DNA from: an uncultured Eubacteriales bacterium
GTDB lineage: Bacteria > Bacillota > Clostridia > Peptostreptococcales > Anaerovoracaceae
Reading direction: 5' to 3'
Assembly: GCA_902786855.1 (NCBI GenBank)
Contig: CADAEH010000001.1
Coordinates: 186,001-250,000 of the forward strand
Length of the DNA: 64,000 bases
Shown in pieces: positions 5,758-49,748 of this stretch. Numbering within the stretch: position 1 is the stretch's first letter; the number at the start of each line of letters is the position of its first letter. Made by a program: the position numbers and the translations under genes. The notes beneath the pieces are model-generated. The model worked only from the letters and a program-made list of their open reading frames with translations. It was not told where the DNA came from and did not search any database.

Positions 5758-5792
5758 GGTAATGCTCCCGGCAGTGGATTACGAGGTGAGAT

Positions 5793-6698: not shown

Positions 6699-6700
6699 AG

Positions 6701-7924: not shown

Positions 7925-7951
7925 ATCAAAACTGGATAGGGCGATTTAAAC

Positions 7952-9121
7952 ATGAGTAAGATAGGAAAGATCCTGCCGGAAAATATCTATACTTCATTAA
8001 GAAAGACGAAAGCTGCATTGATGCGCAGCACTTCTTTACTGATGAATGTTTTTCCGGTCAACGATCGCAAAATCATCTTTTCTAATTTTAACGGCAGAGG
8101 ATTCGGAGATAATCCGAAATATCTTGCAAAAGAATTCGACCGCAGGGGAGACTTTGATCTGTTCTGGATAGCATATGAGGACGAGACGGTGCCGGATACT
8201 ATCACTAAAGTGAAACCGAGATCGCTGTCATGCCTCTATCATATGGCTACCTCAAAGGTGTGGATAGATAATGTCAGAAAAGATCCATACTATGTAAAAA
8301 GGAAAAATCAGTATTACATACAGACATGGCACGGTAATGTTGCACTCAAGAAAATAGAAAAAGACGTTGAAGATAAAATAGGATCTTACTATGTTGAGAG
8401 CGCTAAGCGTGATGCTGAAATGACAGATCTCATGGTTTCCAACAGCGCTTTCGCAGATAGATTGTATTCAGATTCCTTCTGGTATAGGGGCGATATCCGG
8501 CGATTTGGATCACCGAGGCTGGACTGTCTGTTTGAACTGGAGAATGATGAGGAAGCAGTAAAGTCGATAAAGCGCAGCCTGGGAATACCTGAGAACAATT
8601 ATACGGTATTATATGCTCCGACATTCAGGAACTCTCTGTCAATGGATGCGTATGATGTGGATCTTGAAAAAGTACGCGAGACTTTGAAAAAGAATACCGG
8701 CAGGGATGTTTCTGTTCTCCTGCGGCTGCATCCTAATCTGATCGTTGCCAACCTGTCGATCAGCAGCGAGGGGGCGATCGATGCGACGAGATATCCGGAT
8801 GTCTATGAGCTGATGGCAGTTTCAGATGCTCTGATCACAGACTATTCATCGCTTATGTTTGAATTTCCTGCAGCTAAGAGGAAGCCGGTCTTCTGCTATG
8901 CAAAGGATCAGGATGAGTATGACAGAGGATTTTACTTTGAACTGGCAGAGCTGCCATTTGTTTTTACCCGGACGAATGAAGAACTGATAAACAGCATTAC
9001 ATGCTTTGATAAGGAAAAGTATGAGGCAGGCATCAATGCTTTCTATGAAAAAATAGATCTGCATGAGGATGGACATGCTTCTGAACGGGTAGTAAATTAT
9101 CTGATAGAAGAGATCCTTTGA
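7952..9121 (+). CDS. CDP-glycerol glycerophosphotransferase family protein (TagB/TagF-like)
   Basis: This 389-residue protein has the family signatures QTWHGNVALKK (W126, H127) and ITDYSSLMFEF (residues 295-305). TagB/TagF enzymes move glycerol-phosphate (TarL: ribitol-phosphate) from a CDP-alditol onto a membrane-linked acceptor. An N-terminal basic stretch fits peripheral membrane binding. It is one of four family members in the window, so the polymer is expected to carry phospho-alditol groups. Whether this one primes, polymerises or decorates cannot be told. Confidence 0.82.
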   Translation: MSKIGKILPENIYTSLRKTKAALMRSTSLLMNVFPVNDRKIIFSNFNGRGFGDNPKYLAKEFDRRGDFDLFWIAYEDETVPDTITKVKPRSLSCLYHMATSKVWIDNVRKDPYYVKRKNQYYIQTWHGNVALKKIEKDVEDKIGSYYVESAKRDAEMTDLMVSNSAFADRLYSDSFWYRGDIRRFGSPRLDCLFELENDEEAVKSIKRSLGIPENNYTVLYAPTFRNSLSMDAYDVDLEKVRETLKKNTGRDVSVLLRLHPNLIVANLSISSEGAIDATRYPDVYELMAVSDALITDYSSLMFEFPAAKRKPVFCYAKDQDEYDRGFYFELAELPFVFTRTNEELINSITCFDKEKYEAGINAFYEKIDLHEDGHASERVVNYLIEEIL

Positions 9122-9188: not shown

Positions 9189-10103
9189 ATGAAAGCTTTT
9201 GTTACGGGAGTCGGAGGTCAGCTTGGCCACGACGTTATGAATGAACTGGCCCGCAGGGGCTATGAAGGGGTCGGATCGGATATCCAGCCTGAGTATTCCG
9301 GCGTGAAGGACGGCAGTGCTGTAACAGGTATGCCGTATGTCCCATTGGACATAACGGACGACGAGGCTGTAAAGAAAACCATCCGCGGGATACAGCCGGA
9401 TGTCATCGTTCACTGCGCGGCATGGACGAATGTAGACGGTGCTGAGGACCCTGAGAAAAAGCCGATCGTTCACAGGATCAATGCAGAGGGAACGAAAAAT
9501 ATCGCGGAAGCAGCGAAAGCGGCAGACGCTAAGATGGTATACATTTCGACTGACTATGTCTTCGATGGACAGGGCGAAAGACCGTGGAAGCCTGATGACA
9601 GGAACTATGCTCCGCTGAACTATTACGGTCAGACAAAACTGGAAGGCGAACTTGCAGTAGCAGGGACCCTGGAAAAGTATTTTATAGTGCGCATCGCCTG
9701 GGTATTCGGGCTGAACGGCAGGAATTTTATCAAGACCATGGTCAACGTCGGAAGAACGCACGATACAGTCAGAGTGGTCAATGATCAGATCGGGACTCCG
9801 ACATACTGCTATGACCTTGCAAGACTGCTTGTCGATATGATCGGGACAGATAAGTACGGTTACTATCATGCGACCAATGAAGGCGGTTACATAAGCTGGT
9901 ATGATTTCACCTGCGAGATCTACCGCCAGGCGGGAATGGAGACCAGAGTAATACCGGTAACGACAGAAGAATACGGCCTGAGCATCGCAGCCCGGCCATT
10001 CAATTCAAGGCTTGACAGAAGCAAGCTCACAGAAAACGGATTCACACCGCTTCCGGACTGGAAGGATGCGGTAGCAAGATATCTTAAGGAGGCAGATCTA
10101 TAA
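9189..10103 (+). CDS. rfbD: dTDP-4-dehydrorhamnose reductase
   Basis: This 304-residue SDR-type reductase has the N-terminal TGVGGQLGHDV nucleotide loop, ISTDYVFDG, and the YYGQTKLEGE active-site Tyr-x-x-x-Lys. It performs the last step of dTDP-L-rhamnose synthesis. The RBS is CGGAG before ATG 9189. The last base of its stop codon is the first base of the rfbC ATG, so the pair is tightly coupled. Length and motifs match the family. Confidence 0.93.
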   Translation: MKAFVTGVGGQLGHDVMNELARRGYEGVGSDIQPEYSGVKDGSAVTGMPYVPLDITDDEAVKKTIRGIQPDVIVHCAAWTNVDGAEDPEKKPIVHRINAEGTKNIAEAAKAADAKMVYISTDYVFDGQGERPWKPDDRNYAPLNYYGQTKLEGELAVAGTLEKYFIVRIAWVFGLNGRNFIKTMVNVGRTHDTVRVVNDQIGTPTYCYDLARLLVDMIGTDKYGYYHATNEGGYISWYDFTCEIYRQAGMETRVIPVTTEEYGLSIAARPFNSRLDRSKLTENGFTPLPDWKDAVARYLKEADL

Positions 10104-10714
10104 TGGGTCAGATCAAAGTAACATACGATCTTGGAGGAATAGAAGGACTCTGTCTGATAGAGTCCACGATACATGGAGACTCGAGAGGGTACTTTATGGA
10201 GACATTCAGCCAGAAAGATATGTATGAGGCAGGATTGTATTTCTCATTCGTACAGGACAACCAGAGCATGAGCACTAAGGGCGTGCTGCGAGGACTTCAT
10301 TTCCAGAAGAAGTTCCCGCAGACCAAGCTGGTCAGAGTGATCAAGGGAACGGTATATGATGTAGCAGTGGATCTCAGAGCCGGATCGCCTACTTTTGGCA
10401 AATATTACGGAGTGATCCTCACCGAGGACAACAGGAAACAGTATCTCATCCCGCGCGGATTTGCACATGGCTTCCTGGTACTGTCAGATGTGGCCGAGTT
10501 CTGCTACAAGTGCGATGATTTCTATCATGCCAATGATGAGGGCGGTCTTGCCTGGAACGACCCGGCAATAGGTATCGAATGGCCTGAAGTAACTGGTGAG
10601 TATCAGGGAACTGCTGATGCGAGCGGGTATAAACTTGCAGATGGATCACCTCTTGTATTGAGCGACAAGGATCAGAAGTGGCTGTGTCTCAAGGACACGT
10701 TCATCTTTAAGTAA
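10103..10714 (+). CDS. rfbC: dTDP-4-dehydrorhamnose 3,5-epimerase
   Basis: This 203-residue cupin-fold epimerase has the family motifs [26 protein letters not shown] (catalytic His) and [13 protein letters not shown]. It converts dTDP-4-keto-6-deoxyglucose to the L-lyxo form used by RfbD. It overlaps rfbD by one base and has AAGGAGG upstream. It is slightly longer than the usual 180-190 residues because of a C-terminal extension around [12 protein letters not shown]. Confidence 0.93.
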
Positions 10715-10728
10715 GGAGTATCATAAAT

Positions 10729-11616
10729 ATGAAGGGAATAATACTTGCAGGCGGAGCGGGAACAAGACTGTATCCGCTCACCAGAGTGACATCGAAACAG
10801 CTCCTGCCTATCTACGATAAGCCTATGATCTATTATCCGCTGTCCACACTCATGCTGGCAGGGATCAAGGACATACTTGTGATATCAACGCCGGAGGATA
10901 CGCCGAGATTCGAGGCTTTGCTTGGAGACGGATCGCAGTTCGGCATATCTCTGCAGTATAAAGTGCAGCCTTCTCCTGACGGGCTTGCACAGGCTTTCAT
11001 CCTGGGAGAAGAATTCCTGGCGGGAGAAGCGGGTGCTATGGTGCTGGGAGACAACATCTTTTACGGCAGAGGGTTTGGCAAGACGCTCAAAGAAGCAGCG
11101 GCAAATGCTGAGGAAAACGGCAGAGCGACAGTATTCGGATATTATGTACCTGATCCGGAAAGATTCGGCGTGGTAGAGTTCGATGAGGACTGGCATGCCG
11201 TCAGCATAGAAGAGAAGCCAAAAGAACCTAAGAGCAATTATGCCGTGACGGGACTGTACTTCTATCCGGGAGATGTGAGCAAGAGAGCAGGCGAGGTCAG
11301 ACCATCGGCACGCGGGGAACTCGAGATCACCACTCTCAACGAGATGTATCTGAAGGACGGACTTCTGGATGTCAAACTGCTCGGAAGAGGTTTTGCATGG
11401 CTCGATACAGGAACCATGGACAGTCTGCTGGAAGCAGCTGAGTTCGTGCAGATGGTAGAGAAGAGACAGGGGATCAAGATAAGCGCACCTGAGGAGATCG
11501 CATATTCATATGGCTGGATCAACAAAGAGCAACTGCTGAGATCTGCCGATGCATATGGTAAGAGCCCGTACGGTATCCACCTTAAAGCAGTTGCAGACGG
11601 TAAGCTCAGATACTAG
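10729..11616 (+). CDS. rfbA: Glucose-1-phosphate thymidylyltransferase
   Basis: This 295-residue protein begins [18 protein letters not shown], the nucleotidyltransferase signature, followed by [17 protein letters not shown] and LGDNIFYG. It makes dTDP-glucose from dTTP and glucose-1-phosphate, the first step to dTDP-rhamnose. It follows rfbC by 14 bases with TAAGGAG upstream. The fourth pathway gene, rfbB, lies some 17 kb away at 28277. Confidence 0.95.
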
Positions 11617-23107: not shown

Positions 23108-24250
23108 GTGGAAATCAAAGCAAAAAATCCGATCCGATTTATGAAAAAAGGGATCCGTGCAATCAATATCTTCAGGAGCGGAAAGTTTTTCCGGACGGAT
23201 TCTGATGGAAAAAAAGAGCTGTTTATCATGATCAGCTCTTTTTCCAGAGGCGGAGCCCAGCGGGTAGCGGCAGTTCTTGCTTCTGAATTAAGCAAAAAAT
23301 ACCATGTGACAGCGATCATACGAATCGAAGCGGAAGCATCGTATCCGATCGACAGCAGAGTTGAGGTCATCAGGGTCCCGACGGAACAATTAGGTAACAG
23401 AATGAAAAAGACCTATATCCGCTTGCTTAAAATATGCCGGAGACCTGTGGCATCGATCTCGTTCATGTTTGACAGCAACCGCATGAACACATGGGGAGGA
23501 GGGAGCTGCAAAGTCATATGCTCTGAACGGAACAATCCTGCCAAAAAAATGCCGGAAAGATTCGAAGAAACAGCGGACCAGTACAGAAAAGCCGATCATG
23601 TCGTATTTCAGTCAGAAGCAGTCAGGGATCTGTATGATGAAGCGATCCGCAGCCACAGCTCCGTATTGCCCAATCCGGTAAGTGTTGCCTGCTACGCTTC
23701 TCCGGATACAAAACACAGAATAGTTACAGCCGGACGGCTGCATCCTCAGAAGAACCAGGCGATGCTGATCAGAGCTTTTGCGGAGTTCCTCAGGAATCAC
23801 CGTGACTACACATTGTCTATATATGGATCCGGGGAGCTTGAAAGTGAACTGAAACAACTCGCCGCAGACCTCGGTGCAGAAAGCGCGGTGCTGTTTCACG
23901 GAAATGTTGAAAATATCCATCAGGAGATCGCAGATGCTGAAATGTTCGTACTCTCCTCAGACTATGAGGGGCTTTCAAACGCTCTGCTCGAGGCGATGAT
24001 GATGGGGATACCATGTATTTCCACTGCCTGCGAGGGATCGACAGACGTTATCCGTTCAGGTGAAAACGGGATCCTGGTACCGGTAGGCGATGAAGAGGAG
24101 CTGTACAAGGCAATGTGTGCTCTGGCAGATGACGAAAAGAAGAGGAAAGAACTCGCCTGCGAAGGCCGTAAGACAGGAGAAGGATTCCGTAAAGAAAAAG
24201 TCGCGGAAATGTGGATCGAAATGATCGAAAGGGTAGCTGCGGAACAATGA
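23108..24250 (+). CDS. Glycosyltransferase family 4
   Basis: This 380-residue GT-B enzyme starts with GTG at 23108, with AGGAGA about 10 bases upstream. After a basic N-terminal lead of about 40 residues comes FIMISSFSRGGAQRVAAVLA, then IVTAGRLHPQKNQAMLIRAF and SSDYEGLSNALLEAMMMGIP. It is paralogous to the gene at 20206. Its stop overlaps the start of the beta-helix/Wzt gene as ATGA at 24247, so the lyase-like fusion is translated with the glycosyltransferases. Confidence 0.82.
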   Translation: MEIKAKNPIRFMKKGIRAINIFRSGKFFRTDSDGKKELFIMISSFSRGGAQRVAAVLASELSKKYHVTAIIRIEAEASYPIDSRVEVIRVPTEQLGNRMKKTYIRLLKICRRPVASISFMFDSNRMNTWGGGSCKVICSERNNPAKKMPERFEETADQYRKADHVVFQSEAVRDLYDEAIRSHSSVLPNPVSVACYASPDTKHRIVTAGRLHPQKNQAMLIRAFAEFLRNHRDYTLSIYGSGELESELKQLAADLGAESAVLFHGNVENIHQEIADAEMFVLSSDYEGLSNALLEAMMMGIPCISTACEGSTDVIRSGENGILVPVGDEEELYKAMCALADDEKKRKELACEGRKTGEGFRKEKVAEMWIEMIERVAAEQ

Positions 24251-27200
24251 CAGAACACAGCAGTGACAATAAAATACTTCGCTGGAATGATATAAGCTGG
24301 GTAAAGGATCATATCAACGTCAGAAAATTCAGACCTGACCGGGTCGAAGAATCTGAAGTTGTAAAGAAACAGCTTGCAGAGCATTTTTTCGCTGAGGACG
24401 ATGAACATTTCCGGATCATTTCCTTCCCGGGCAAGGGAAAGGTCACCGATTCCGGATATGATATGTTCGTGTGCCTTTATACTGCACTTCCGGCAGAAAG
24501 AGATATTACATTCAGAGCTGATGTTCTGGTCGCAAAAGCACCGGATATGGATAAACTGAACGGACAGGAATCTTTCGGACTGTTCTTCAGAGATACGATG
24601 GATAAGGAGCCTGCTACCGGCTACTATTATTCAAACATGGCAGCTGCAGGTCTGTGGGATGGCAGATATGGCATGTTCGGCAGAGATGGAATAACAGCGA
24701 AAGATCATGGGCATATAAGAAACATCCGCGGTTATGGCAAGGGAACATTGCATGGTGCAGATGATCATATGCCTCTGCACATAGAACTTGATAAGAAAGG
24801 CAGTACTGTTTCCGCATTTATTGGATCCGGCAGCACAGAGATCCTGATCCATGAGGAAACAAGAACTGGATTTCAGCCGGATGGCTTCAGATGCAGAGAC
24901 GATAAATTCGTTTATGCGGGCTTCCTGGCTGCCCGGGGATTTGAGCTGGAGATCATCAAGGATTCGGTTGAGATCTGCATAGGACCGGAGACGGATCAGC
25001 CGGGAGCAGATCTGAAAACAGCATCTGTTCCGGATGCTTTCCGGGATAAGGATGAGGAAAAAGCCGCTTATCGTGACGCGTCACAACCGACCAGTGTCAT
25101 ATGGGCTTCACCTGACGGCAGACCTGAAGGCGGAGGCAGCAAGACAGATCCGTGCGATCTGTATACAGCAGTTGCTGCGTGCCGTGATGGCGAAGAAGTC
25201 CGTCTTATGGCAGGCTGCTATTATCCCGGGGAATCCATTGTTCTTGGATGCGGCGATCCGGAGGAGCAGGGGCTGCGAAGGTACTTCACAGGAGAAGTGC
25301 AGGGCGATGAGCGGGCTGTGCTGGATTTCGGAGACACATCGAACAGTCTCAGGATCACAGGAGACTGCTGGGACGTGTCAGATATTGATGTGACGAGAGG
25401 GAATGGTATATGCATCGAAGGCAGTTACAACAGGATCCTGAGGTGCACTTCCCATAATAATAATGAAACAGGTGTGCTGATAAGACACCCGGATAATAAT
25501 TCGCCGAGATCAGAATGGCCGTCATACAATCTGGTTGAGGACTGTACTTCATCTGAGAACTGCGATCCTTCCGGACAGCATGCTGATGGTTTTGCATGCA
25601 AGGTCGCTGCAGGCGAGGGGAATGTTTTCCGCCGCTGCAAAGCCTTTATGAATACAGATGACGGATTTGATCTGTTTTCAAAGAACAGACCGATCGGAGC
25701 GGTGATTATTGAAAACTGTGAGAGCTATAAAAACGGATATCTGCGCAGTGCGGATGACAGTCTGACAGAATCTTTCGGAAACGGGAACGGGTTCAAGCTC
25801 GGAGGCAGCGGAGAAAGGGTCGAACACGTTGTCCTGGGATCCTCAGCATGGAGCAACCGGGGACATGGTTTCACCAATAACTCCAACCCGTCATTGATAC
25901 TGAAAGGCTGTAAAGGCCGGGATAACGAAAAAGGCAACCTGAAGTTTATTACTTACAGCGGTGATGCTGCTGTGAACAAAATAATAGAGAATTGTGACTT
26001 CGGCGAAGAGCGCAAGGTCATGATAAGCATCAACAACATCGAAAAAGAATACCGCCTCGGACAGATCGGACACGGCACACTGCAGAGGGACCTTCAGAGC
26101 TGGTGGGCAAGGCGCACAAAAAAGGAAGACCCGAACCTCAAGATCGGCAGTGAGCAGAGACTGACCGGAGATATCCTGCATGCTCTCAACGGAGTAGACC
26201 TTACGGTATATCAGGGAGAGCGGCTCGGTATCATAGGCGGAAACGGAGCAGGCAAGAGCACTTTGCTCAAGCTCATATCCAGGGTAGCCTCTCCTACACG
26301 CGGGAGTATGGACCTTTACGGCAGGGTCACGTCAATGCTGGAAGTCGGGACCGGATTCCATGGCGAGATGACCGGAAGGGAAAACATATACCTCAACGGA
26401 ACGATATTGGGCATGAGCAAGTCCGAGATAGATTCCAAGCTTGATGAGATCATCGCCTTCTCAGAGATAGGAGAATATATCGACACTCCGGTCAAAAGAT
26501 ATTCAAGCGGCATGTATGTAAGGCTGGCTTTCTCAGTAGCAGCCCACCTTGACAGTGAGATCGTGATCATGGATGAGGTCCTCGCGGTAGGTGACGTGGG
26601 ATTTCAGAAAAAGTGCATACGCAAAATGCGGCAGGCTGCAGAGGATGAAAACAGGACGATACTTTATGTCAGCCACAACATGACTACAGTAAGGGAATTG
26701 TGTGACCGATGCATCGTCCTCGCCGAAGGAAAGATAATATTTGACGGCGATGTCGATGATGCTATCAGCTGCTATACGAAGTATCTTCAGTCATCTCCGG
26801 ATGAAGAAAAGAACCTTCTTCTGAAAGAACGGAGAGATAAAGAACTTACCGGTATCTGCAAGGTCGCAGAACTGAATGTGGATGAGAACGTCATCAAATC
26901 AAAACAGGATCTTGAGTTTGAGATCGCATTCAGCAGTACTGAAGAGCGCAGCGATGTATGCATAAGGCTGATCGTCTGTAACGGGCCGGGCGTAGTGATC
27001 GGGATGGCATATTCGGATCCGGTGAAAGTGAAAAAGGGTATCACTCGTGCCAGATATTCACTTTCCCCCGGGAATCTGGCACCCGGAGAATACGTATGCG
27101 ACATTGCGGTATTTGAATTCCGCAATGAGATCGAGCTGAAGCATGATTTTGTCAGCAAGGTGCTGCCTTTCCGTATACAGGAAGAGGAGACATTGTTCGG

Positions 27201-27285
27201 AAGATCGTGGAAGGTCAGAGCCTGGGGGAATATCAGGCTGGAACATATCAGAACAGAGGAACTGACGTATGAGCGGCAGGAGTGA
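24247..27285 (+). CDS. Polysaccharide-lyase-like beta-helix fused to a Wzt-type ABC exporter ATPase
   Basis: The protein has about 1012 residues and three parts. Residues 1-240 are a beta-rich, concanavalin-like region. Residues 270-585 are a right-handed beta-helix with polysaccharide lyase family 9 hallmarks: ADGFACK (D447), NTDDGFDLF (D471, D472, D475) and GNGFKLGG (K517). Residues 592-1012 are a complete Wzt: Walker A GGNGAGKST from 664, a SSGMYVRLAFS signature, a DEVLAVGD Walker B, and a C-terminal Wzt carbohydrate-binding domain. No signal peptide is present, so the lyase-like part would be cytoplasmic. ATG 24247 overlaps the preceding stop. An in-frame ATG at 26020 could start Wzt alone. 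The permease follows with a 17-base overlap. Confidence 0.85.
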   Translation: MTEHSSDNKILRWNDISWVKDHINVRKFRPDRVEESEVVKKQLAEHFFAEDDEHFRIISFPGKGKVTDSGYDMFVCLYTALPAERDITFRADVLVAKAPDMDKLNGQESFGLFFRDTMDKEPATGYYYSNMAAAGLWDGRYGMFGRDGITAKDHGHIRNIRGYGKGTLHGADDHMPLHIELDKKGSTVSAFIGSGSTEILIHEETRTGFQPDGFRCRDDKFVYAGFLAARGFELEIIKDSVEICIGPETDQPGADLKTASVPDAFRDKDEEKAAYRDASQPTSVIWASPDGRPEGGGSKTDPCDLYTAVAACRDGEEVRLMAGCYYPGESIVLGCGDPEEQGLRRYFTGEVQGDERAVLDFGDTSNSLRITGDCWDVSDIDVTRGNGICIEGSYNRILRCTSHNNNETGVLIRHPDNNSPRSEWPSYNLVEDCTSSENCDPSGQHADGFACKVAAGEGNVFRRCKAFMNTDDGFDLFSKNRPIGAVIIENCESYKNGYLRSADDSLTESFGNGNGFKLGGSGERVEHVVLGSSAWSNRGHGFTNNSNPSLILKGCKGRDNEKGNLKFITYSGDAAVNKIIENCDFGEERKVMISINNIEKEYRLGQIGHGTLQRDLQSWWARRTKKEDPNLKIGSEQRLTGDILHALNGVDLTVYQGERLGIIGGNGAGKSTLLKLISRVASPTRGSMDLYGRVTSMLEVGTGFHGEMTGRENIYLNGTILGMSKSEIDSKLDEIIAFSEIGEYIDTPVKRYSSGMYVRLAFSVAAHLDSEIVIMDEVLAVGDVGFQKKCIRKMRQAAEDENRTILYVSHNMTTVRELCDRCIVLAEGKIIFDGDVDDAISCYTKYLQSSPDEEKNLLLKERRDKELTGICKVAELNVDENVIKSKQDLEFEIAFSSTEERSDVCIRLIVCNGPGVVIGMAYSDPVKVKKGITRARYSLSPGNLAPGEYVCDIAVFEFRNEIELKHDFVSKVLPFRIQEEETLFGRSWKVRAWGNIRLEHIRTEELTYERQE

Positions 27286-28126
27286 CAATTATCACATTCA
27301 TATAGAAGGAGGACAGAGTCCGCTTTCTCTCAATCTCAGAGAGATATGGCGGTACCGCGATCTTATAGTGCTGTTCACACGCAGGACCATGGCCCTGAAG
27401 TACAAGCAGACGGTACTCGGACCACTCTGGCTCGTAGTGGCGCCGTTTCTGACCAGTGTAGTATATGCAGCCGTATTCAAGGGCATCGCGGGCATAAGTA
27501 CAGAAGGAGTTCCGGCTTTGCTGTTTTATCTGTGCAGTCATTCTCTGTGGAATTTCTTCTCATCATGCCTCAAGAGGAATTCAGCTACATTCATCAGTAA
27601 CGCTAACATTTTCGGCAAAGTGTATTTCCCGAGACTTGCGATATCTTTCTCTACAGTGCTTTCTGCTCTGCTGGAGTTTCTGATCGAATTCGGGATGATC
27701 CTGATGATCCTGTTATTCTACGCGCTGAAAGGTGAAGCTCATCCTTCACTGGTACTCATACCGCTGCTGCCTTTTGTTATTCTCACTACAGGTATGATGG
27801 GCATGGGTCTCGGAGTGCTCGTCTCGAGCATGACCACAAAATATAAAGACCTGAGTCTGCTTGTAGATTTCGGTGTATCACTGTGGATGTATGCGACCCC
27901 TGTTGTATACCCTCTCTCTCAGCTGAATGAGGGAGGGACGCTGTACCGTTTAATGGCATTGAATCCTATGACAGCACCTATGGAATTATTCCGTAAAATA
28001 ATGCTCGGACAAGGCAGCATCAACGTGCTTTCCGTTGTTATATCGCTTGTCTTCACGGCTGTCGCGCTGATCGGAGGAATGCTTATTTTCAACAAAGTGG
28101 AGCGCAGCTTTATAGATACTATTTAG
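27269..28126 (+). CDS. wzm: ABC-2 type polysaccharide exporter permease (Wzm/TagG/RgpC-like)
   Basis: This 285-residue membrane protein has six membrane segments. RDLIVLFTRRTMALKYKQTVLGPLWLV is split here by the family's amphipathic N-terminal helix, and YATPVVYPLSQL and NPMTAPMELFR are the conserved late motifs. It pairs with the overlapping Wzt-like ATPase to export a lipid-linked polymer. It is the last gene before a gap of 150 bases, so the long co-directional block probably ends here. Confidence 0.9.
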   Translation: MSGRSDNYHIHIEGGQSPLSLNLREIWRYRDLIVLFTRRTMALKYKQTVLGPLWLVVAPFLTSVVYAAVFKGIAGISTEGVPALLFYLCSHSLWNFFSSCLKRNSATFISNANIFGKVYFPRLAISFSTVLSALLEFLIEFGMILMILLFYALKGEAHPSLVLIPLLPFVILTTGMMGMGLGVLVSSMTTKYKDLSLLVDFGVSLWMYATPVVYPLSQLNEGGTLYRLMALNPMTAPMELFRKIMLGQGSINVLSVVISLVFTAVALIGGMLIFNKVERSFIDTI

Positions 28127-28276: not shown

Positions 28277-29326
28277 ATGACAATCATCGTTACCGGCGGA
28301 GCCGGATTTATCGGAAGCAATTTTATATTCCACATGCTGGATAAGTATCCTGATTACAGGATAGTCTGCGTTGATAAGCTGACATATGCAGGCAATCTCA
28401 GCACTCTTGCATCACTCATGGATGAGAACGACAAGAATTACGATGCGGCAAAAAGTGCGCGCTTCAGATTCGTCAAACTCGACATCTGTGACCGTGAAGG
28501 CGTGTACAGGCTGTTTGAAGAAGAACATCCTGACATCGTTGTCAATTTCGCTGCAGAGAGCCATGTCGACAGATCCATTGAAGATCCGGGCGTTTTCCTG
28601 CAGACCAATATCATCGGCACAAGTGTCCTCATGGACGCCTGTCGCAAGTACGGCGTCAAGCGCTATCATCAGGTATCCACAGATGAGGTATACGGCGACC
28701 TGCCGCTCGACAGACCGGACCTGTTTTTCACAGAGGAGACACCTATCCATACGAGCTCACCATACAGCTCATCCAAGGCCGGGGCAGATCTGCTCGTGAT
28801 GGCTTACCACAGAACATTCGGTCTTCCGGTCACCATCAGCAGGTGCTCCAACAACTACGGACCTTATCACTTCCCTGAGAAGCTGATACCTCTTATGATA
28901 GCCAATGCACTGGCTGACAAGCCTCTGCCTGTATACGGAGAGGGCATCAATGTACGTGACTGGCTGTATGTTGAGGATCACTGCAAAGCGATCGACCTTA
29001 TCATCCACAATGGACGCGTCGGAGAGGTATACAATGTCGGCGGACACAACGAGATGAGAAATATCGATATCGTCAAACTGATCTGCAAGGAACTCGGCAA
29101 GCCTGAGAGTCTTATAACCTATGTCACTGACCGTAAGGGTCATGATATGAGATATGCCATAGACCCGACCAAGATCCACAACGAACTTGGCTGGCTGCCT
29201 GAGACCAAATTCCAGGATGGCATCAGGAAGACGATACAGTGGTATCTCGACAACCGCGACTGGTGGGAAGAGATCATCAGCGGCGAGTATCAGAACTACT
29301 ATGAAAAGATGTACGGTGACAGATAG
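28277..29326 (+). CDS. rfbB: dTDP-glucose 4,6-dehydratase
   Basis: This 349-residue extended SDR enzyme has TGGAGFIGSNF, FAAESHVDRSI, HQVSTDEVYGDL and YSSSKAGADLL (Tyr-x-x-x-Lys). It converts dTDP-glucose to dTDP-4-keto-6-deoxyglucose for RfbC and RfbD. GGAAGGA lies upstream of the ATG. It is separated from rfbD-C-A by about 17 kb and has its own candidate promoter, which might let the pathway branch to other dTDP-sugars. Confidence 0.95.
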   Translation: MTIIVTGGAGFIGSNFIFHMLDKYPDYRIVCVDKLTYAGNLSTLASLMDENDKNYDAAKSARFRFVKLDICDREGVYRLFEEEHPDIVVNFAAESHVDRSIEDPGVFLQTNIIGTSVLMDACRKYGVKRYHQVSTDEVYGDLPLDRPDLFFTEETPIHTSSPYSSSKAGADLLVMAYHRTFGLPVTISRCSNNYGPYHFPEKLIPLMIANALADKPLPVYGEGINVRDWLYVEDHCKAIDLIIHNGRVGEVYNVGGHNEMRNIDIVKLICKELGKPESLITYVTDRKGHDMRYAIDPTKIHNELGWLPETKFQDGIRKTIQWYLDNRDWWEEIISGEYQNYYEKMYGDR

Positions 29327-29395: not shown

Positions 29396-30127
29396 ATGAG
29401 CAAGGTAGCAGCAATTATTTTCGCCGGCGGAAGCGGCGTGCGCATGGGCGCAGGCAAGCCAAAACAGTTCCTCGAGGTAGACGGCAGACCTATCATCATT
29501 CACACTCTGGATATTTTCGAGAATCATCCGGCAGTTGACGAGATCTACATCGCCTGTAAGGAAGACTTTATCGGCCAGCTTAAAAGGATGATCAGAAGAT
29601 TTGACATTTCCAAGGTCAAAGCGATCGTCCCGGGCGGAACGACCGGCATGGGATCGATCTACAACGCACTCAAGGCTTCTGCAGAGCAGTGTCCGGAAGA
29701 TACTATAGTGCTTATCCACGATGGCGTAAGGCCTTTCATTTCTGCTGACCTGATAGATAAAGTCATCAGCACAGTCATTGAAGACGGCGCCGCAGTTACA
29801 TGCACTCCTCTCTTCGAGACCCCTATAATCAGTAAGGGCGGAGAGATAGTCGAGGAGACACCGGTCAGAGCTGACTGCTATACAGCTCAGGCACCACAGG
29901 CCTTCCGTCTCGGTATGATCCTCAAAGCGCATGAGATCGTAAGGAGAAACAATCCTGAGTACGATGGCATTATAGACAACTGTACAATGATGAACAGCCT
30001 CGGTATGGCAGTGCCAATCGTAAAAGGACCTCGCAGCAACATCAAGGTCACTACACCTGAGGATCTGTTCATGTTCAAGGCTATGCTCGAGTATCGTGAG
30101 ACAAGAGACGCTCTGGGACTTGACTGA
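29396..30127 (+). CDS. IspD/TarI-family cytidylyltransferase
   Basis: This 243-residue protein opens IIFAGGSGVRMGAGKPKQFL, the CTP-binding loop shared by IspD and TarI, and has IHDGVRPFI and QAPQAFR. TarI makes CDP-ribitol; IspD acts in isoprenoid synthesis. A setting between rfbB, a GDPD-type enzyme and CDP-alditol transferases favours a TarI-like role. There is no TarJ reductase next to it, so the alditol phosphate is uncertain. Confidence 0.8.
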   Translation: MSKVAAIIFAGGSGVRMGAGKPKQFLEVDGRPIIIHTLDIFENHPAVDEIYIACKEDFIGQLKRMIRRFDISKVKAIVPGGTTGMGSIYNALKASAEQCPEDTIVLIHDGVRPFISADLIDKVISTVIEDGAAVTCTPLFETPIISKGGEIVEETPVRADCYTAQAPQAFRLGMILKAHEIVRRNNPEYDGIIDNCTMMNSLGMAVPIVKGPRSNIKVTTPEDLFMFKAMLEYRETRDALGLD

Positions 30128-30162
30128 TAACACAGTCGATTCTGCAGACGATCCATATTATT

Positions 30163-31419
30163 ATGATAGACATTAAAAAAATTCTGAGAAAAAAACTGAA
30201 CCCGCTGCCGCCATGCCCGGAAAAGCCGATCGAACTCAAGGGCGAGGCGGCATCCTTGGATTGCAGTTTTGCACTGGTTTATACCGGTAACGGGGCAAGC
30301 GGTCAGAAATACGACAGGCTGCTCGCCGGCAGGGATGTGCAATTCCGCACTTATGAAGGAGTAGGCGGCAGAGCGGACATGTGCGCTGTCATCTATTGCA
30401 ATGCAAAGGAAGGATTCCCTGTTCTGGAGAACGGGTTTGAGCATGTTGAAGCTGAGTTCACAGGCTTCACTCTGAGGAAGAAAACAGACGGACAGTGGCA
30501 GTGGATGTGCACTGACGGGAACTGGCATGCTGCCGGGCAGGATATGCCTGAGAAGAAGCTCTATCCCGAGGGCAGCAGACCTGAGCTGCAGGCGGAAGAA
30601 CTTTCCGGAATATACATTCTGGATGCGTCCTGGAAGCTGGCTGACGGTACCGCTGCAGACTGCGGATATCCGATGTTCACCAATCAGCTTATGGCTCATG
30701 CACTCGGAGCCATGGACGGCAAAGCCTATCACAACACGATGGCGGCTTATGAGAATGCCATGCCGAAAGGTTACCTGTATTATGAAGTGGACCTTTCTAT
30801 GACGACTGACGGCAGGCTGGTGCTCTGCCATGGCTGGACAGAGTCCAACTGCGAGCATACAGGATTCGAATATTCAGAAGATCTGGACAAGACGATGACA
30901 TATAAAAAGCTGATGAGCATGAAGGTCCACGGCAATCCGCTGATCGACCTCAGATCTTTTTACAAAGTGATGAAGGCTCATCCGGATCATCTGTATGAAT
31001 TCGATCTGCACTCCGTAAAGGGCAAAAAGGCTGTCCGCATGACGGAAGAGATGATCAGAGACTGCGGAAATGACAGCCGGGTGCTTGACCGCGTGCTGAT
31101 GCAGGTATACTCGAACAAAATGTATCAGGCGGTGGACAGCACGTATCACTTCAAGTATTACCAATACATTATCGGCAAGCCGGAACTGCGGCTCTATGAG
31201 AGACTGCCGTTCCTTATCGATGAGGGCATCTGTGCAGCAGCAATACCTGCGCGCAAGGCTTGCCCTGAATATGTTGAAACACTAAGGAATGCAGGCATAT
31301 ATGTTCTTGTTTATACAGTAGGAAGCGATGCCGAAGAGGCGAAAAAGCTTCTGGATATGGGAGTCAACACGATCTGTACTGATTATGTAACTCCTGCAGA
31401 TATTGAAGAATTATCCTGA
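30163..31419 (+). CDS. Cytoplasmic GDPD-family phosphodiesterase with an extra N-terminal domain
   Basis: This 418-residue protein has a C-terminal TIM-barrel part (from about residue 175) with the glycerophosphodiester phosphodiesterase residues: MAHALGAM (H179), HNTMAAYENA, YYEVDLSMTTDG (Glu and Asp of the metal site) and LCHGW (second His). The family cleaves glycerophosphodiesters to sn-glycerol-3-phosphate and an alcohol. The first 150 or so residues are not recognised and there is no signal peptide. Between a cytidylyltransferase and a CDP-alditol transferase it may supply or recycle alditol phosphate, or synthesise rather than break a phosphodiester. This is inference. Confidence 0.75.
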   Translation: MIDIKKILRKKLNPLPPCPEKPIELKGEAASLDCSFALVYTGNGASGQKYDRLLAGRDVQFRTYEGVGGRADMCAVIYCNAKEGFPVLENGFEHVEAEFTGFTLRKKTDGQWQWMCTDGNWHAAGQDMPEKKLYPEGSRPELQAEELSGIYILDASWKLADGTAADCGYPMFTNQLMAHALGAMDGKAYHNTMAAYENAMPKGYLYYEVDLSMTTDGRLVLCHGWTESNCEHTGFEYSEDLDKTMTYKKLMSMKVHGNPLIDLRSFYKVMKAHPDHLYEFDLHSVKGKKAVRMTEEMIRDCGNDSRVLDRVLMQVYSNKMYQAVDSTYHFKYYQYIIGKPELRLYERLPFLIDEGICAAAIPARKACPEYVETLRNAGIYVLVYTVGSDAEEAKKLLDMGVNTICTDYVTPADIEELS

Positions 31420-31464
31420 AGCACAGGGAAATCGACAGAAAGTATATAGAAAAGGGTCAGTCGT

Positions 31465-32868
31465 ATGAGCAAAAAGGACACGGGAAAAAAGAGCATGGCA
31501 GCCAGGATCAGGAGCGCGATCCGCCGCCGCATGAATGACTTCAGATACAAAATGATAATCAGCAAAAAAGCTGACCGTATGATCGCGGAGATGGAAGAAG
31601 GAGTCCGCAAGGCCAGATCCATGTCTGAAGAAGAGCACAGAAAGCTCTCTGAAGAACTCAGAAAAAGAGAAGCAGATCTGAAAGAGTCAGATTCTGAAGT
31701 GTACAAATCATATCGCAGAAGGCTCAGGAGCAAATACCTCAAGGATGTGATACCTTCAGTATATGCAGAGGCGGCAAAGAATCCGGTAGAAGAAAAGGTC
31801 GTTTTCATGGAAAACGGAACGTTCCCGGCTCCGACAGTCGATCTGCTGTATGCGGAACTCCTCAGACAGGGAAAGTACAGTATCAAGACATTCAGCCTTA
31901 TGATCCGTAAGGTGTCGGATGCGGAATACTTTATGAATGCGGTCGATTATATCCGCGAGGCAGCTACCGCGAAGGCTGTGTTCATCACCACAGCTAACAG
32001 GCTGATGAGCCAGTTTGACTTAAGACCGGAGACCAGACTGATCCAGCTGTGGCATGGTGTCGGAATGTTCAAAAAGGTCGGCTTCAGCACACTTGACAGC
32101 GAGGGCTTCGGGCGCAGCGCCAAGTCAAGAGAGGTCTATAACGATTACAGGAACTACACCGACGTAACAGTTGCGGCAGAGGAGCAGATCTGGACATTTG
32201 AAGACGCGTTCCATATCAGCAGGGATACAGGCATATTCAAGCCGATCGGCATCTCCAGGACTGACGTGTTCTTTGACGAGGAATACAGGAAAGAGAGACG
32301 CAGGAGACTGGATGAGGCATTTCCTGAGTGCAAAGGGAAAAAGATCATACTGTATGCTCCGACCTTCAGAGGGCGCGTGGCGCAGGCAACTGCACCCGAT
32401 GAACTGGATATAAAGAAGATGGCAGAAAAGCTGTCCGATGACTATGTGCTGCTTATCAGACATCACGAAGTAAGCAAGGTCTTCCCGAAGATCCCTGCAG
32501 AGGTGGAGAGCAGTTTTGCCTTTGACATGAACAGGAACAATATAATGAGTACGGACGGCCTGCTGTCTATAGCAGATATACTCATAACGGACTACTCATC
32601 TCTCGGCTTTGAGTTTGCCGTAATGGAAAAACCGATGGTCTTCTTCGCATACGACCTTGAAGAATACCTCGATACCCGCGGCATGTACTATGACTACAGC
32701 GAGATCACGCCTGGTCCTGTGTGCAAAACGACAGAAGAGGTTGCAGATTATATCGCAGACATAGATAACCGTTTTGACAGAAATGCTGTAAGAGAATTCA
32801 GGGAAAAGTATGTCGGAGCCTGCGACGGCCATGCAACAGAAAGGACTATCGCCCTGATCGAGCAATAG
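31465..32868 (+). CDS. CDP-glycerol glycerophosphotransferase family protein
   Basis: This 467-residue protein has a basic, helical N-terminal region of about 100 residues. IQLWHGVGMFKKVGF follows (W196, H197), then YAPTFRG and ITDYSSLGFEFAV (T375 onward), the TagB/TagF signatures. It probably transfers alditol phosphate from a CDP donor at the inner membrane surface. It closes the plus-strand block and converges with the next gene, 36 bases away, on the other strand. Confidence 0.84.
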   Translation: MSKKDTGKKSMAARIRSAIRRRMNDFRYKMIISKKADRMIAEMEEGVRKARSMSEEEHRKLSEELRKREADLKESDSEVYKSYRRRLRSKYLKDVIPSVYAEAAKNPVEEKVVFMENGTFPAPTVDLLYAELLRQGKYSIKTFSLMIRKVSDAEYFMNAVDYIREAATAKAVFITTANRLMSQFDLRPETRLIQLWHGVGMFKKVGFSTLDSEGFGRSAKSREVYNDYRNYTDVTVAAEEQIWTFEDAFHISRDTGIFKPIGISRTDVFFDEEYRKERRRRLDEAFPECKGKKIILYAPTFRGRVAQATAPDELDIKKMAEKLSDDYVLLIRHHEVSKVFPKIPAEVESSFAFDMNRNNIMSTDGLLSIADILITDYSSLGFEFAVMEKPMVFFAYDLEEYLDTRGMYYDYSEITPGPVCKTTEEVADYIADIDNRFDRNAVREFREKYVGACDGHATERTIALIEQ

Positions 32869-32904
32869 TCCTGAAAAATACAAGGTCAGTCTGTGAGACC
32901 GGGA

Positions 32905-34617
32905 TCACTTGTCTCCGTTGTCTCCGTTATCTCCATTGTCTGCGGTGCCGCCGAGTATGATCTGATCTATTATCCTGTCGGCTGCGTTGTCATCAACATC
33001 TGAGAAGCATTCATCACTGAAAGCTATCGTCTTTTCGAGCTCATAATCGCCTGTCTTCAGCGCGGTGATGAGCTCTTCCATTGTATCGCATACTTTGCCC
33101 GGAGCTGTCTCGAGAATGCTCTGGTGCACGCCTCTCACGACTTCATAGATCGGTCTGTCATATGTATAGAACAGGACCGGTCTTTTGAACATGGAAAATT
33201 CATAATATGCAGATGAATAATCTGTGACCATGATATCCGTGACAGGATACAGGTCGTGAATGTCGGTCACATCGCTGAGATCGATGATCCTGTCCCTGAA
33301 CCTTTCTTCTATCGGAGGTTTCTCTTCGATGAACGGGTGCATCTTGAACGCCCAGATATATTCGTCTCCGCAGAAGTCATATACCATCTCCTGATCAAGA
33401 GTGGAATAGTCGAAAAATGATGATTTCTGGCTGCGGCCTCTGAAGGTCGGAGCGAAGAGGATCAGCTTTTTGCCCTTGCATTCCGGATGGTTCCTGTAGA
33501 ATTTTTCTGTCTTTTCTTTTATCTTATCCTCTTCAAGCAGGTTGTCGAGCCTTGCCATGCCGAGAGGCAGGACCTTTTCTTCCGGAACACCGAAGAGCTC
33601 ACTGTAGACTCCGGCAAGATGCTCTGAACCGGTGATCACGTAGTCATAATGTCTGTGGCAGTTTTCGACCGGGTGAGGCGAGCCGGACTTGCCGAATCTT
33701 GAATAACCGATAGCCTTGAAGCCTTCGCCTGCATGCCATACCTGTACAAGCTTGACATCATCCTGGAGGTCAAGATACTCGAATACAGGCACGTAGTCGT
33801 CTACAAAAATGAAATCCTGCTTTGACATCTTCCTGAGCGTGCTGAGCCAGTTGCCGACGCTGTTGTGGCTGCCGACGGAGTGGCGCAGCGAGTAAGTGAC
33901 ATTGATCCTGTCTTCGAGATGCCTTTCCTTGATGCGGTCATCAAGACCTTTCAGGTTGCCCCACAGGAAAGGCTTGGTCTCAGACATCAGCAGGACATTG
34001 ATGCGGCGGTCATTGTTACGGAAATGAGACATGCCGTTATAGATGCTCTGGACTGCAGCACGCTTTACTATGGTACGTGCACAGCGGAGCTTTCCCTCAA
34101 GAGTATGGCGCTCGCTCACTACGAACTTCTTTTCCCAGTTCATGTTCTCTATCATGAAGTGGGAATGCAGCGAAGGGATAATGTTGACATTGTCAAAACA
34201 GAGAGGCTTGAAATGTGTTGTATACGCATAGCGACCCCTTCCGTAAGGGAAGACACGGTCGAGATCAACAAGCTCATATGCCATGTCATAAGAAACCGTG
34301 CATATATGAGGACGTGACCCGCCCGGTACGCGCGCAACGAAAAACCATCTGCCGTTTTTCAGAAAACCGCCTTCATCTATCACGGCCATATTGATCCTGA
34401 AGCGGTATACCCCTTCAGAATGCTCGACCGGTTTCAGAGCGATGTCCCGGATGAATTCAGCCGGGCGCTTCTGTGAAAATGTGACTCTTGAGAGACTGAA
34501 ATTGATCGGTTCTGAGTACTCCGAGCGTACAGCTACGTTAAGGAACAGTCTCTCCCATGAGATGTCTATGACCTGTATATTGCTGTCAGCGACATAAGTA
34601 CTATGATTGTTTCCCAT
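32905..34617 (-). CDS. CDP-glycerol glycerophosphotransferase family protein with N-terminal beta-rich domain
   Basis: This 570-residue protein has about 190 N-terminal residues forming a beta-rich accessory region. The TagB/TagF catalytic part has QVWHAGEGFKAIGYSRFG, LFAPTFRGR and VTDYSSAYYEFSMFK. It is a close paralogue of the gene 41 bases upstream. The C-terminus is an Asn-Gly-Asp repeat encoded by tandem 9-base units near 32908-32938, a likely slippage site. Its role is probably addition of glycerol-phosphate-type groups; the acceptor is unknown. Confidence 0.83.
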   Translation of the reverse strand: MGNNHSTYVADSNIQVIDISWERLFLNVAVRSEYSEPINFSLSRVTFSQKRPAEFIRDIALKPVEHSEGVYRFRINMAVIDEGGFLKNGRWFFVARVPGGSRPHICTVSYDMAYELVDLDRVFPYGRGRYAYTTHFKPLCFDNVNIIPSLHSHFMIENMNWEKKFVVSERHTLEGKLRCARTIVKRAAVQSIYNGMSHFRNNDRRINVLLMSETKPFLWGNLKGLDDRIKERHLEDRINVTYSLRHSVGSHNSVGNWLSTLRKMSKQDFIFVDDYVPVFEYLDLQDDVKLVQVWHAGEGFKAIGYSRFGKSGSPHPVENCHRHYDYVITGSEHLAGVYSELFGVPEEKVLPLGMARLDNLLEEDKIKEKTEKFYRNHPECKGKKLILFAPTFRGRSQKSSFFDYSTLDQEMVYDFCGDEYIWAFKMHPFIEEKPPIEERFRDRIIDLSDVTDIHDLYPVTDIMVTDYSSAYYEFSMFKRPVLFYTYDRPIYEVVRGVHQSILETAPGKVCDTMEELITALKTGDYELEKTIAFSDECFSDVDDNAADRIIDQIILGGTADNGDNGDNGDK

Positions 34618-34657
34618 CTGATGATACTTCCTTATCTAAGTATTGCGGTATCTGCGT

Positions 34658-36403
34658 CTACTTGCTGCTTTCCGGACTTTCCGGCTCTTTGCCGAGCAGT
34701 ATCTGATCGATGATCCTGTCTGCTGCATGGCCGTCATAGTTGCTGAAGTTTTCTTCTCTGAACTTCAGAGTCTTGTCCAGTTCGTAATCCTTGGTCTCAA
34801 GGGCGGTCATGAGTTCATCAAATGTATCGCAGACCTTGCCGGGAGCTGTCTCCTTTATGCTCTTATGTACTCCGCGGACGATCTCATATACTTCTCTGTC
34901 GTAAGTGAAGAAGAGTATCGGGCGTTCCATCAGCGAGAATTCGTAATATGCTGAAGAGTAATCTGTGATCATGATATCTGTGACATAGTACAGGTCGTTG
35001 ATATTTTTTTCCTGTGTCAGATCTATTATGCGATCTCCGTATTCTTCAGGTATTTTTGGCTTGTTGTGTGTGAACGGATGCATCTTGAAAGCCCAGATGT
35101 ATTCATTACCGCAGAATTCATAGATCCTGTCGATATCGAGCTGGCTGTAATCATAGTGAGCCTTTTTCTGGCCGGAACCTCTGAATGTAGGCGAGAAGAG
35201 TATGAGCTTTTTGCCTTTGCATTCAGGATGAGCTGCGTAGAATTCCTCGGTTTTGCTCTTGATAACATCCTCGTCGAGGAAACCATCCAGACGAGCCATA
35301 CCAAGCGGAAGGAAATTTTCTCTCGGCAGTCCGAATACTTCGCTGTATACTTCGACAAGGCTCTCGGAGCCGGTGATCACATAGTCATACCTCCTGTGGC
35401 AGTTGTATTCAGGATGCGGTGAAGACTTGCCGCCGAAACGCGAGTATCCTACAGACTTGAAGCCCACTCCTGCGTGCCATACCTGGATCAGCTTGGTATC
35501 TTCGGTCAGCTTGAGGAAATTAAAGATCGGCACGAAATCATCGACGAAGATATAGTCATTGGCAGCAAGCTTTCTGACGGTCTTGAGCCAGCTGCCTGCG
35601 CTGCTGTTTCTGCCGACAGCCTGCCTGAAAGTATAGGAAATGCCAAACTCCTTATCGAGACCTCTTTCTTTGATCCGTTGGTCGATGAACTTGAGGTTGC
35701 CCCAGATATACGGCTTGGTCTCGGACATGAAGAGGATGTTCTTCTTGCCCGGACGCCTTGTATGTGAATAGAAATCATATGCCGACTGGATCATCGACAG
35801 CTTGACTCTTTTGAGTACGCAGCGGAACTTGCCGTTGAGTGTACGCCTTTCGGATACTGCAAACCTGTCACGCCACTTAGGGTTTTCTATCATGAATCTC
35901 GAGTTCATGACAGGGACGATGTTAGTGGAGTCATTGCAGAAAGTCGCGAAGTATACGTTATATGAATATTTGCCGCGGCCGTAGCTGAATATCCTGCACA
36001 TTTCAGGCAGCTTATAAGCGGCTTCATGAGAGATCGTGCATATGTGCAGGGCATCGCTCCCTGTCACCCATGTCGTAATGCGCCATCTGCCGTTTTCAAG
36101 AAAACTGGATCCGTCCATAGCTGAGAGATTGAGCAGGAAGTAATATTTGTTTCCTTCTCTCTTATATGGTTCGAGCGGGATCTCCTTGATCAGGTTTCCG
36201 GTGAGGACGGTTTCCTGTTCGTTATCATCGTCCTCATCGAAGTTCGGGACCTCATCGGTAGGGAAGACGATCCTGGTCATGCATATCACAAGTTCTTCGT
36301 CATGATCGGATTCTATCGTCAGGAGCAGGTTGATCCTCTCCCAGCTCATTTCAGTGATCCTGAGTTTTGGGTCGTTTACATAATTGACTGTAACAGGGGT
36401 CAT
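34658..36403 (-). CDS. CDP-glycerol glycerophosphotransferase family protein (paralogue)
   Basis: The protein has about 581 residues and the same layout as its downstream neighbour: an accessory beta-rich part, then QVWHAGVGFKSVGYSRFG, LFSPTFRGSG and ITDYSSAYYEFSLME. The ATG at 36403 is chosen because AAAGGA lies about 8 bases before it, and because MTPVTVNYVNDPKLRITEMS aligns with the paralogue's N-terminus. A longer frame to 36493 lacks these features. An acidic insert near residue 55 (FDEDDDNEQE) is absent from the paralogue. Confidence 0.83.
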   Translation of the reverse strand: MTPVTVNYVNDPKLRITEMSWERINLLLTIESDHDEELVICMTRIVFPTDEVPNFDEDDDNEQETVLTGNLIKEIPLEPYKREGNKYYFLLNLSAMDGSSFLENGRWRITTWVTGSDALHICTISHEAAYKLPEMCRIFSYGRGKYSYNVYFATFCNDSTNIVPVMNSRFMIENPKWRDRFAVSERRTLNGKFRCVLKRVKLSMIQSAYDFYSHTRRPGKKNILFMSETKPYIWGNLKFIDQRIKERGLDKEFGISYTFRQAVGRNSSAGSWLKTVRKLAANDYIFVDDFVPIFNFLKLTEDTKLIQVWHAGVGFKSVGYSRFGGKSSPHPEYNCHRRYDYVITGSESLVEVYSEVFGLPRENFLPLGMARLDGFLDEDVIKSKTEEFYAAHPECKGKKLILFSPTFRGSGQKKAHYDYSQLDIDRIYEFCGNEYIWAFKMHPFTHNKPKIPEEYGDRIIDLTQEKNINDLYYVTDIMITDYSSAYYEFSLMERPILFFTYDREVYEIVRGVHKSIKETAPGKVCDTFDELMTALETKDYELDKTLKFREENFSNYDGHAADRIIDQILLGKEPESPESSK

Positions 36404-36544
36404 AAACTGAGTCCTTTCTGTTGTAAATTGCGGCTCATTATCTGATCGCCGCGGTTGCAGCGGCATATTATCATGCCGTTGACCTGTCTTCATAATAGCT
36501 TATCATTCCACGCCTGTTTTCTGCAATACAGACATCCGGTAACT

Positions 36545-48274: not shown

Positions 48275-48293
48275 ACCGCTTGGTCAATATTAA

Positions 48294-48321
48294 TTGCGGC
48301 AATTCTTGTGAGTGATATAAT
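48294..48321 (+). promoter_or_regulatory. Extended -10 promoter before the double-FHA gene
   Basis: TTGCGG at 48294-48299, a 16-base spacer, and TGATATAAT at 48313-48321 (TG-n-TATAAT). It leaves a leader of about 145 bases before ATG 48471. The GAGTGATATAAT core recurs before the 37902 gene. Confidence 0.5.
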
Positions 48322-49718: not shown

Positions 49719-49748
49719 TGCAGTATCAGAAGCGTCATAAGAAATAAT

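What the first reader, a model, noticed from the sequence alone, without database searches (positions are those of the whole stretch)
24247..27285. Polysaccharide-lyase-like beta-helix fused to the Wzt exporter ATPase
Seen: one open frame carries a lyase family 9-like beta-helix with four Asp (447, 471, 472, 475) and Lys 517 in the expected motifs, followed by a full Wzt with its carbohydrate-binding domain. Known: PL9 lyases act outside the cell, while Wzt works inside at the ABC exporter. A lyase-like domain with apparently intact Ca and base residues, in the cytoplasm at the mouth of the exporter, could trim, hold or release the polymer during export. I know of no such characterised fusion.
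Basis: partly seen in the sequence, partly recalled or inferred. Interest (0 to 1): 0.78.

Follow-up and report, generated by a model that had tools for sequence, protein, structure and literature searches.

The report
Lyase fused to polysaccharide exporter ATPase
A bacterium carries one protein that joins a sugar-chain-cutting enzyme of a kind normally sent outside cells to the inside motor that exports the cell's own sugar chains, and several relatives keep the same cutter beside the same exporter, so chains may be cut inside the cell as they leave.

The parts
24247..27285 (+). PL9-like / Wzt fusion gene, 1012 aa
24247..25089 (+). N-terminal region with concanavalin-like jelly roll (aa 1-281; domain about 50-250)
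   Evidence: model; Foldseek matches to 3o12, 3mep and legume lectins; N-domain also matched in some secreted PL9 proteins
25090..26004 (+). PL9-type right-handed beta-helix (aa 282-586)
25585..25587 (+). Asp447 codon, metal ligand by alignment (Pel9A Asp209)
25657..25671 (+). stretch with the Asp471, Asp472, Asp475 codons (Pel9A Asp233, 234, 237 by alignment)
   Evidence: Asp233 and Asp237 named
25795..25797 (+). Lys517 codon, catalytic base by alignment (Pel9A Lys273)
26005..26022 (+). fusion joint: EERKVM aligns with DEKKVM, which follows the start Met of the unfused Wzt in G365
26005..27282 (+). Wzt: nucleotide-binding domain (to about 26790) and C-terminal carbohydrate-binding-type domain
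27269..28126 (+). wzm, ABC-2 permease, overlapping the fusion gene
   Evidence: PF01061 64 bits
23108..24250 (+). GT4 glycosyltransferase, ATGA overlap with the fusion gene; its kind is fused to PL9 in L036
21288..21917 (+). methyltransferase of the same gene run (possible rival chain cap)
9189..11616 (+). probable rmlD, rmlC, rmlA (dTDP-rhamnose)
   Evidence: read from sequence, names recalled, not run through a library
28277..29326 (+). rmlB-like dehydratase
   Evidence: PF16363 292.8 bits; the name rmlB is inferred

Best explanation
The protein is an exporter ATPase carrying its own polymer-cutting enzyme. A PL9-type lyase with its lectin-like domain was probably recruited from the secreted, pectin-degrading kind without its signal peptide and became an accessory of ABC (Wzm/Wzt) exporters for a uronate polymer, probably of galacturonate and rhamnose. 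In the cytoplasm the lectin-like domain and beta-helix grip the lipid-linked chain at the mouth of the exporter, and Lys517 with the bound metal cuts it by beta-elimination at a GalA. The piece left on the lipid then ends in a 4,5-unsaturated GalA, which has no 4-OH and cannot be lengthened there, and the Wzt carbohydrate-binding domain takes it for export. Fusion ties cutting to loading. Shown: predicted fold, active-site residues by alignment, no signal-like N-terminus, linkage and fusions. Inferred: activity, substrate, direction of evolution, and the cap and length-setting role.
Against: No activity, substrate or localisation was measured. PL9 activity is generally Ca2+-dependent and EDTA-sensitive (PMC6627557, passages), while cytosolic Ca2+ is low (recalled). 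Three of 11 members have no wzm or wzt in the stretch held (L009, L039, L041), and the G365 exporter cluster has no PL9 (its copy lies about 22.5 kb away). A second Wzm/Wzt pair in the window's own genome has no PL9 in the 15 kb stretch around it, so the lyase is not a general exporter part. The gene runs of the window, G365 and G036 hold a methyltransferase that could make the cap. PL11 was found in only 3 of 11 genomes searched, one of these three with a lipoprotein-like start, and not in the window's own. The epimerase name is recalled: the libraries place it only among SDR enzymes. The active-site residues are kept in secreted relatives too, so they do not show a special role.
Confidence: 0.45

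Rival explanations
1. Clearance: the lyase is active in the cytoplasm but degrades stalled or over-long polymer that was not exported, as a safety valve like AlgL in the periplasm. It does not make the export end.
For: A lyase in a biosynthetic operon is known to clear trapped polymer: AlgL is required for viability during alginate production (PMC8829089, abstract). The methyltransferase in 3 of the clusters could be the true cap enzyme. In G365 the PL9 gene stands apart from the exporter genes.
Against: Fusions to Wzt and to GT4 and the overlapping wzt-PL9-wzm frames tie it to assembly and export, more than a clearing enzyme needs.
Confidence: 0.25
2. Binding only: the beta-helix and jelly roll hold or measure the chain and no longer cut; the residues are kept for metal-mediated uronate binding.
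For: Low cytosolic Ca2+ (recalled). A lectin-like domain is predicted.
Against: The Lys base is kept in 11 of 11, which binding alone would not obviously need.
Confidence: 0.15
3. Polymer C5-epimerase: the same proton abstraction followed by re-protonation, changing uronates in the chain before export.
Confidence: 0.08
4. The fusion is an assembly or base-calling artefact: two genes in reality. The association would stand, the fusion not.
For: Single genome of 62 contigs, 87% complete; no second strain. Another frame would end with TGA overlapping ATG 26020.
Against: No base run longer than two at the joint itself; the C-terminal tail of about 20-30 residues of unfused relatives is missing, so one indel would not restore it; the start Met of Wzt is lost while the next residues are kept in frame, and G365 has no PL9 gene there; PL9 fusions to another partner occur in L036 and L099.
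Confidence: 0.07

Closest known systems
PL9 pectate and rhamnogalacturonan lyases (Pel9A 1RU4; 5OLQ)
   Same: fold, four Asp, Lys base
   Different: PL9 enzymes act outside the cell (recalled); here no signal-like N-terminus, and a fusion to Wzt
Wzt of CBD-type Wzm/Wzt transporters (8dku and related entries)
   Same: NBD plus C-terminal domain, adjacent wzm
   Different: I know of no Wzt with an N-terminal lyase, and the paper searches (capped listings) showed none
Chain terminators of ABC-dependent O-antigen systems (WbdD, WbbB, GT137)
   Same: would stop growth at the non-reducing end and be read by the Wzt CBD (PMC11231755, passages)
   Different: those add a group or sugar and carry a coiled-coil ruler; here the end would be made by cutting
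AlgL alginate lyase
   Same: lyase encoded with the synthesis genes of the polymer (PMC8829089, abstract)
   Different: clears the periplasm, (alpha/alpha)5 toroid fold (abstract and section headings)
PL11 rhamnogalacturonan lyases YesW and YesX
   Same: a signal-less PL11 stands directly after wzt in L037
   Different: another Pfam family; not found in the window's genome

Membership tests
Polysaccharide lyase family 9 | sequence and right-handed beta-helix fold of the family | tested here: met
Polysaccharide lyase family 9 | metal-site Asp residues and Lys base | tested here: met
   by alignment, with residues
Polysaccharide lyase family 9 | lytic activity on pectate or rhamnogalacturonan | not testable with these tools
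   needs purified protein
Polysaccharide lyase family 9 | secretion signal (usual, not defining) | tested here: not met
   highest 11-residue hydropathy in the first 70 residues at most 1.23 in 11 of 11 of the group; 1.8 or more in 33 of 36 others (cut chosen after seeing the values)
Wzt (CBD-type) | ABC ATPase domain with Walker A, signature and Walker B | tested here: met
   PF00005 69.9 bits; GGNGAGKST, SSGM, IMDEVLAVGD in the sequence
Wzt (CBD-type) | C-terminal carbohydrate-binding domain | tested here: inconclusive
   Wzt_C 23.6 bits, under the cut-off 30.4; 8dku alignment extends into it; beta strands there in the model
Wzt (CBD-type) | partner permease Wzm | tested here: met
   PF01061 in the overlapping next gene
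Coiled-coil ruler terminators (WbdD, WbbB) | terminator with a coiled-coil ruler | tested here: inconclusive
   no long helix in the PL9 part of the models; other proteins of the gene run were not examined for one
AlgL-type homeostasis lyase | periplasmic location and (alpha/alpha)5 toroid fold | tested here: not met
   no signal-like N-terminus; beta-helix fold
Polymer C5-epimerase (AlgE/AlgG) | epimerase activity | not testable with these tools

The most novel reading that the evidence does not exclude
A third way of ending and exporting chains in ABC-dependent polysaccharide assembly: instead of adding a cap, a cytoplasmic lyase cuts the lipid-linked chain, and the unsaturated uronate left is both the stop of growth and the tag that Wzt reads. 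In this genome cutter, reader and motor are one protein.
Probability: 0.28. Interest if true: 0.88.

Novelty: new variant of a known kind. Interest (0 to 1): 0.72.

Why it matters
How ABC-dependent pathways outside the studied examples fix chain length and mark chains for export is, as far as I know, little known. A cutting enzyme as part of the exporter would be a new principle, would point to pectin-like polymers made by Firmicutes of animal guts (one relative is a sheep duodenum assembly by its record title; the other titles do not all name a source), and is testable with a few gene removals and one enzyme assay. It also warns that PL9 and PL11 genes in such genomes do not always mean pectin degradation.

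Tried and rejected
A read-through of two adjacent genes by one indel: the other frames were read across the joint. An ATGA-type overlap exists in another frame, but I saw no usual PL9 tail in any frame, and G365 has no PL9 gene at that place. Internal start at Met592: pairing with the 16S tail is weak (-3.8 kcal/mol; -7.4 to +0.3 at nine other starts of the window), so free Wzt from the same gene is neither shown nor excluded.

A catabolic role (cytoplasmic digestion of imported pectin fragments) was considered and set aside because of the biosynthetic neighbours and fusions. Secretion of the PL9 part by another route was not tested and seems unlikely for a Wzt fusion.

Among the hits of the searches of 394, 391 and 348 genomes no second Wzt fusion was seen. 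PL11 in the window's own genome: none. The fusion model has pTM 0.56, so the placing of the domains relative to each other was not used. The second-look table tests only about residues 280-592; the jelly-roll naming rests on Foldseek rows. Paper searches for a lyase with Wzt or for a bacterial rhamnogalacturonan cluster showed nothing on the point in the titles and abstract starts listed; some searches listed only 8 to 12 of 56 to 694 papers, and subscription papers are mostly not held.

Weak points of the neighbour count: the group of 11 was not fixed beforehand. Ten were drawn by score; L099 scores like the secreted proteins and was put in the group after I saw its lack of a signal, its fusion and its neighbours. 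Drawn by score alone the count is 7 of 10 against 1 of 37; drawn by low hydropathy alone it is 8 of 14 against 0 of 33. The wzt, wzm and GT4 profiles were built from the group's own loci; one search repeats the Wzm and Wzt counts with one Wzm and one Wzt from another contig, with the same outcome for Wzm (8 and 0) and 7 and 0 for Wzt at E<=1e-60. Flanks were shorter than 9 kb for most: at least 5 kb on both sides in 28 of 36 others and in 6 of 11 of the group.
Full report

THE JOINT. In the same family, genome G365 has a syntenic gene run: GT4, methyltransferase, GT4, GT4, wzt, wzm. No PL9 gene stands before wzt there. Its Wzt is the closest match found in the order sample (68% identical). It begins MDEKKVM; the fusion reads GEERKVM at that place. 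So the PL9 part ends where the start Met of Wzt would be, and the rest of Wzt is kept in frame. The C-terminal tail of about 20-30 residues of unfused relatives is missing in the fusion. Other frames across the joint were read: one ends in TGA overlapping ATG 26020, so a two-gene reading cannot be wholly excluded without a second strain.

RELATIVES. The window's own genome has a second, unfused PL9-like gene without a signal, ending about 12 kb before the window starts, after a GT4. A scan of the named genome collection with an alignment of three gave seven loci. I examined 47 PL9 proteins: a group of 11 and 36 others. The 11 are window, L009, L036, L038, L039 (same place as in G365), L040, L041, L042 (same as G036), L086 (G1011), L099 (G318) and L100 (same as L037), in 10 genomes. 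Ten of them were drawn by score; L099 scores like the secreted proteins and was put in after I saw that it lacks a signal, is fused to GT4 and stands beside wzm. Highest N-terminal hydropathy is at most 1.23 in the 11; it is 1.8 or more in 33 of the 36, and L110, L115 and L128 are exceptions.

NEIGHBOURS. wzm is in the stretch held for 8 of 11 (window, L036, L038, L040, L042, L086, L099, L100; distances 0 to 7.4 kb, 7 of them within 5 kb). L009, L039 and L041 have none; L041 lies near a contig end. None of the 36 shows wzt, wzm or this kind of GT4. Flanks were at least 5 kb on both sides in 28 of 36 others and in 6 of 11 of the group. The profiles were built from the group's own loci, so I repeated the count with one Wzm and one Wzt from contig C5 of the window's genome: Wzm again 8 of 11 and 0 of 36, Wzt 7 of 11 and 0 of 36. 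Fisher p is 5e-7, 5e-6 within 5 kb, 1e-5 for 7 of 10 against 1 of 37 (group by score alone) and 1e-5 for 8 of 14 against 0 of 33 (by hydropathy alone); the rows are related, so all are too small. That C5 Wzm/Wzt pair has no PL9 in the 15 kb stretch around it: the lyase belongs to one kind of exporter, not to all. The five residues are kept in 11 of 11, and also in the beta-helix rows of the others, so they show fitness for catalysis, not a special role. In a tree of 47 beta-helices ten of the eleven form one group (99/97); L099 joins it at 93/85 on a long branch, which is unsure.

ARRANGEMENTS. L086: wzt 4622-5947, PL9 5931-7766, wzm 7763-8614, overlapping. L038: wzt, PL9, wzm with overlapping called frames. 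L040: wzt, GT4, PL9, wzm. L042: wzt, PL9, methyltransferase, wzm. L036: GT4, PL9 fused to GT4 (919 aa), an epimerase-like gene, wzm, wzt. L099: PL9 fused to GT4 (1032 aa; Pfam Beta_helix and Glycos_transf_1), wzm, a short wzt (243 aa). L037: wzm, wzt, a signal-less PL11 protein, further glycosyltransferases, GT4, PL9. The PL11 protein matches YesX at E 2.5e-136; a second signal-less PL11 lies in G1011 beside similar glycosyltransferases; the PL11 of G318 has a lipoprotein-like start. PL9 and PL11 are different families that both include rhamnogalacturonan lyases (PL9: 5olq; PL11: Pfam names), which points to a polymer with a GalA-Rha backbone. In 11 genomes searched PL11 was in 3, not in the window's own.

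PRECURSORS. The window has rmlD-, rmlC- and rmlA-like genes by my reading and an rmlB-like gene. The own genome has a Ugd-family gene with an N-terminal HTH, a galactokinase-like gene and an epimerase-like gene together (L101). Ugd- and epimerase-like genes also lie in the exporter clusters of G036 and G365 (the epimerase there is on the other strand). That the epimerase is a UDP-glucuronate 4-epimerase is my recalled reading: NCBIfam gives only SDR relatives, and the best PDB match is labelled dTDP-glucose 4,6-dehydratase. Relatives of the L036 epimerase at E<=1e-40 were in 7 of 9 genomes (the match in G792 is partial). So a GalA/Rha polymer is likely, not shown.

EXPORTER SUBFAMILY. The Wzt of the fusion at E<=1e-125 occurs in 3 of 388 genomes of the order: G000, G036, G365. 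These are the three of 394 with a close PL9 member; G318 has the distant one and a different, short Wzt. The two samples were drawn separately and differ slightly, and at most four candidates a genome were scored in the rows shown. In G365 the PL9 gene is about 22.5 kb from wzt.

MECHANISM. In characterised CBD-type systems a cap at the growing non-reducing end stops elongation and is recognised by the CBD of Wzt (PMC9445017, passages; PMC11231755, passages). A lyase cut would leave the lipid-linked piece with an unsaturated uronate at exactly that end, without the 4-OH. That would combine length control and an export tag. This step is inference. Clearance, as for AlgL (PMC8829089, abstract), is the main rival, and a methyltransferase could be the true capping enzyme: relatives of the window's were found in G365 and G036 only, among 15 stretches searched. 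PL9 activity is generally Ca2+-dependent and EDTA-sensitive (PMC6627557, passages), which counts against strong activity in the cytoplasm unless another metal serves.

NOVELTY. The paper searches listed nothing on a lyase joined to Wzt or placed among Wzm/Wzt genes (titles and abstract starts of capped listings). The parts are known; the combination and the recurrent wzt-PL9-wzm gene set are, as far as these searches reach, not described.

Noticed in passing
L037:1873-3861 (same gene as L100:11995-13983, minus strand): Signal-less PL11 rhamnogalacturonan lyase (YesX-like) directly after wzt; another at L096:1297-3282.
   Followed up: partly
L036:7673-10432 and L099:4206-7304: PL9-like proteins fused to a GT4 glycosyltransferase, in two distant genomes.
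   Followed up: partly
L009:8164-10062 (ends about 12 kb before the window starts): Second PL9-like gene without a signal in the same genome, between a GT4 and TOD1/MUCI70-type and WaaS/CpsH-type glycosyltransferases; similar arrangement in L039 and L041.
   Followed up: partly
L101:7153-8673 (own genome, contig C11): UDP-glucose dehydrogenase-like protein with an N-terminal helix-turn-helix domain in one frame (HTH_3 and UDPG_MGDP_dh by Pfam).
   Followed up: no
window 45252-64000: Downstream genes look like a type VII secretion cluster (EssC-size protein 50485-55518, small WXG100-like proteins, kinase and phosphatase); names recalled from reading, no library was run.
   Followed up: no
window 29396-36493: IspD-family cytidylyltransferase and CDP-glycerol glycerophosphotransferase-family genes next to the exporter, so a teichoic-acid-like polymer may be made at the same locus.
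   Followed up: no
L036:4139-6529: 796-residue protein in the same cluster with no Pfam match at 1e-5 and no NCBIfam match at 1e-10.
   Followed up: no
L011:5912-8049 (own genome, contig C5): A second Wzm/Wzt pair in the same genome without a PL9 gene in the 15 kb stretch; used as a control.
   Followed up: partly
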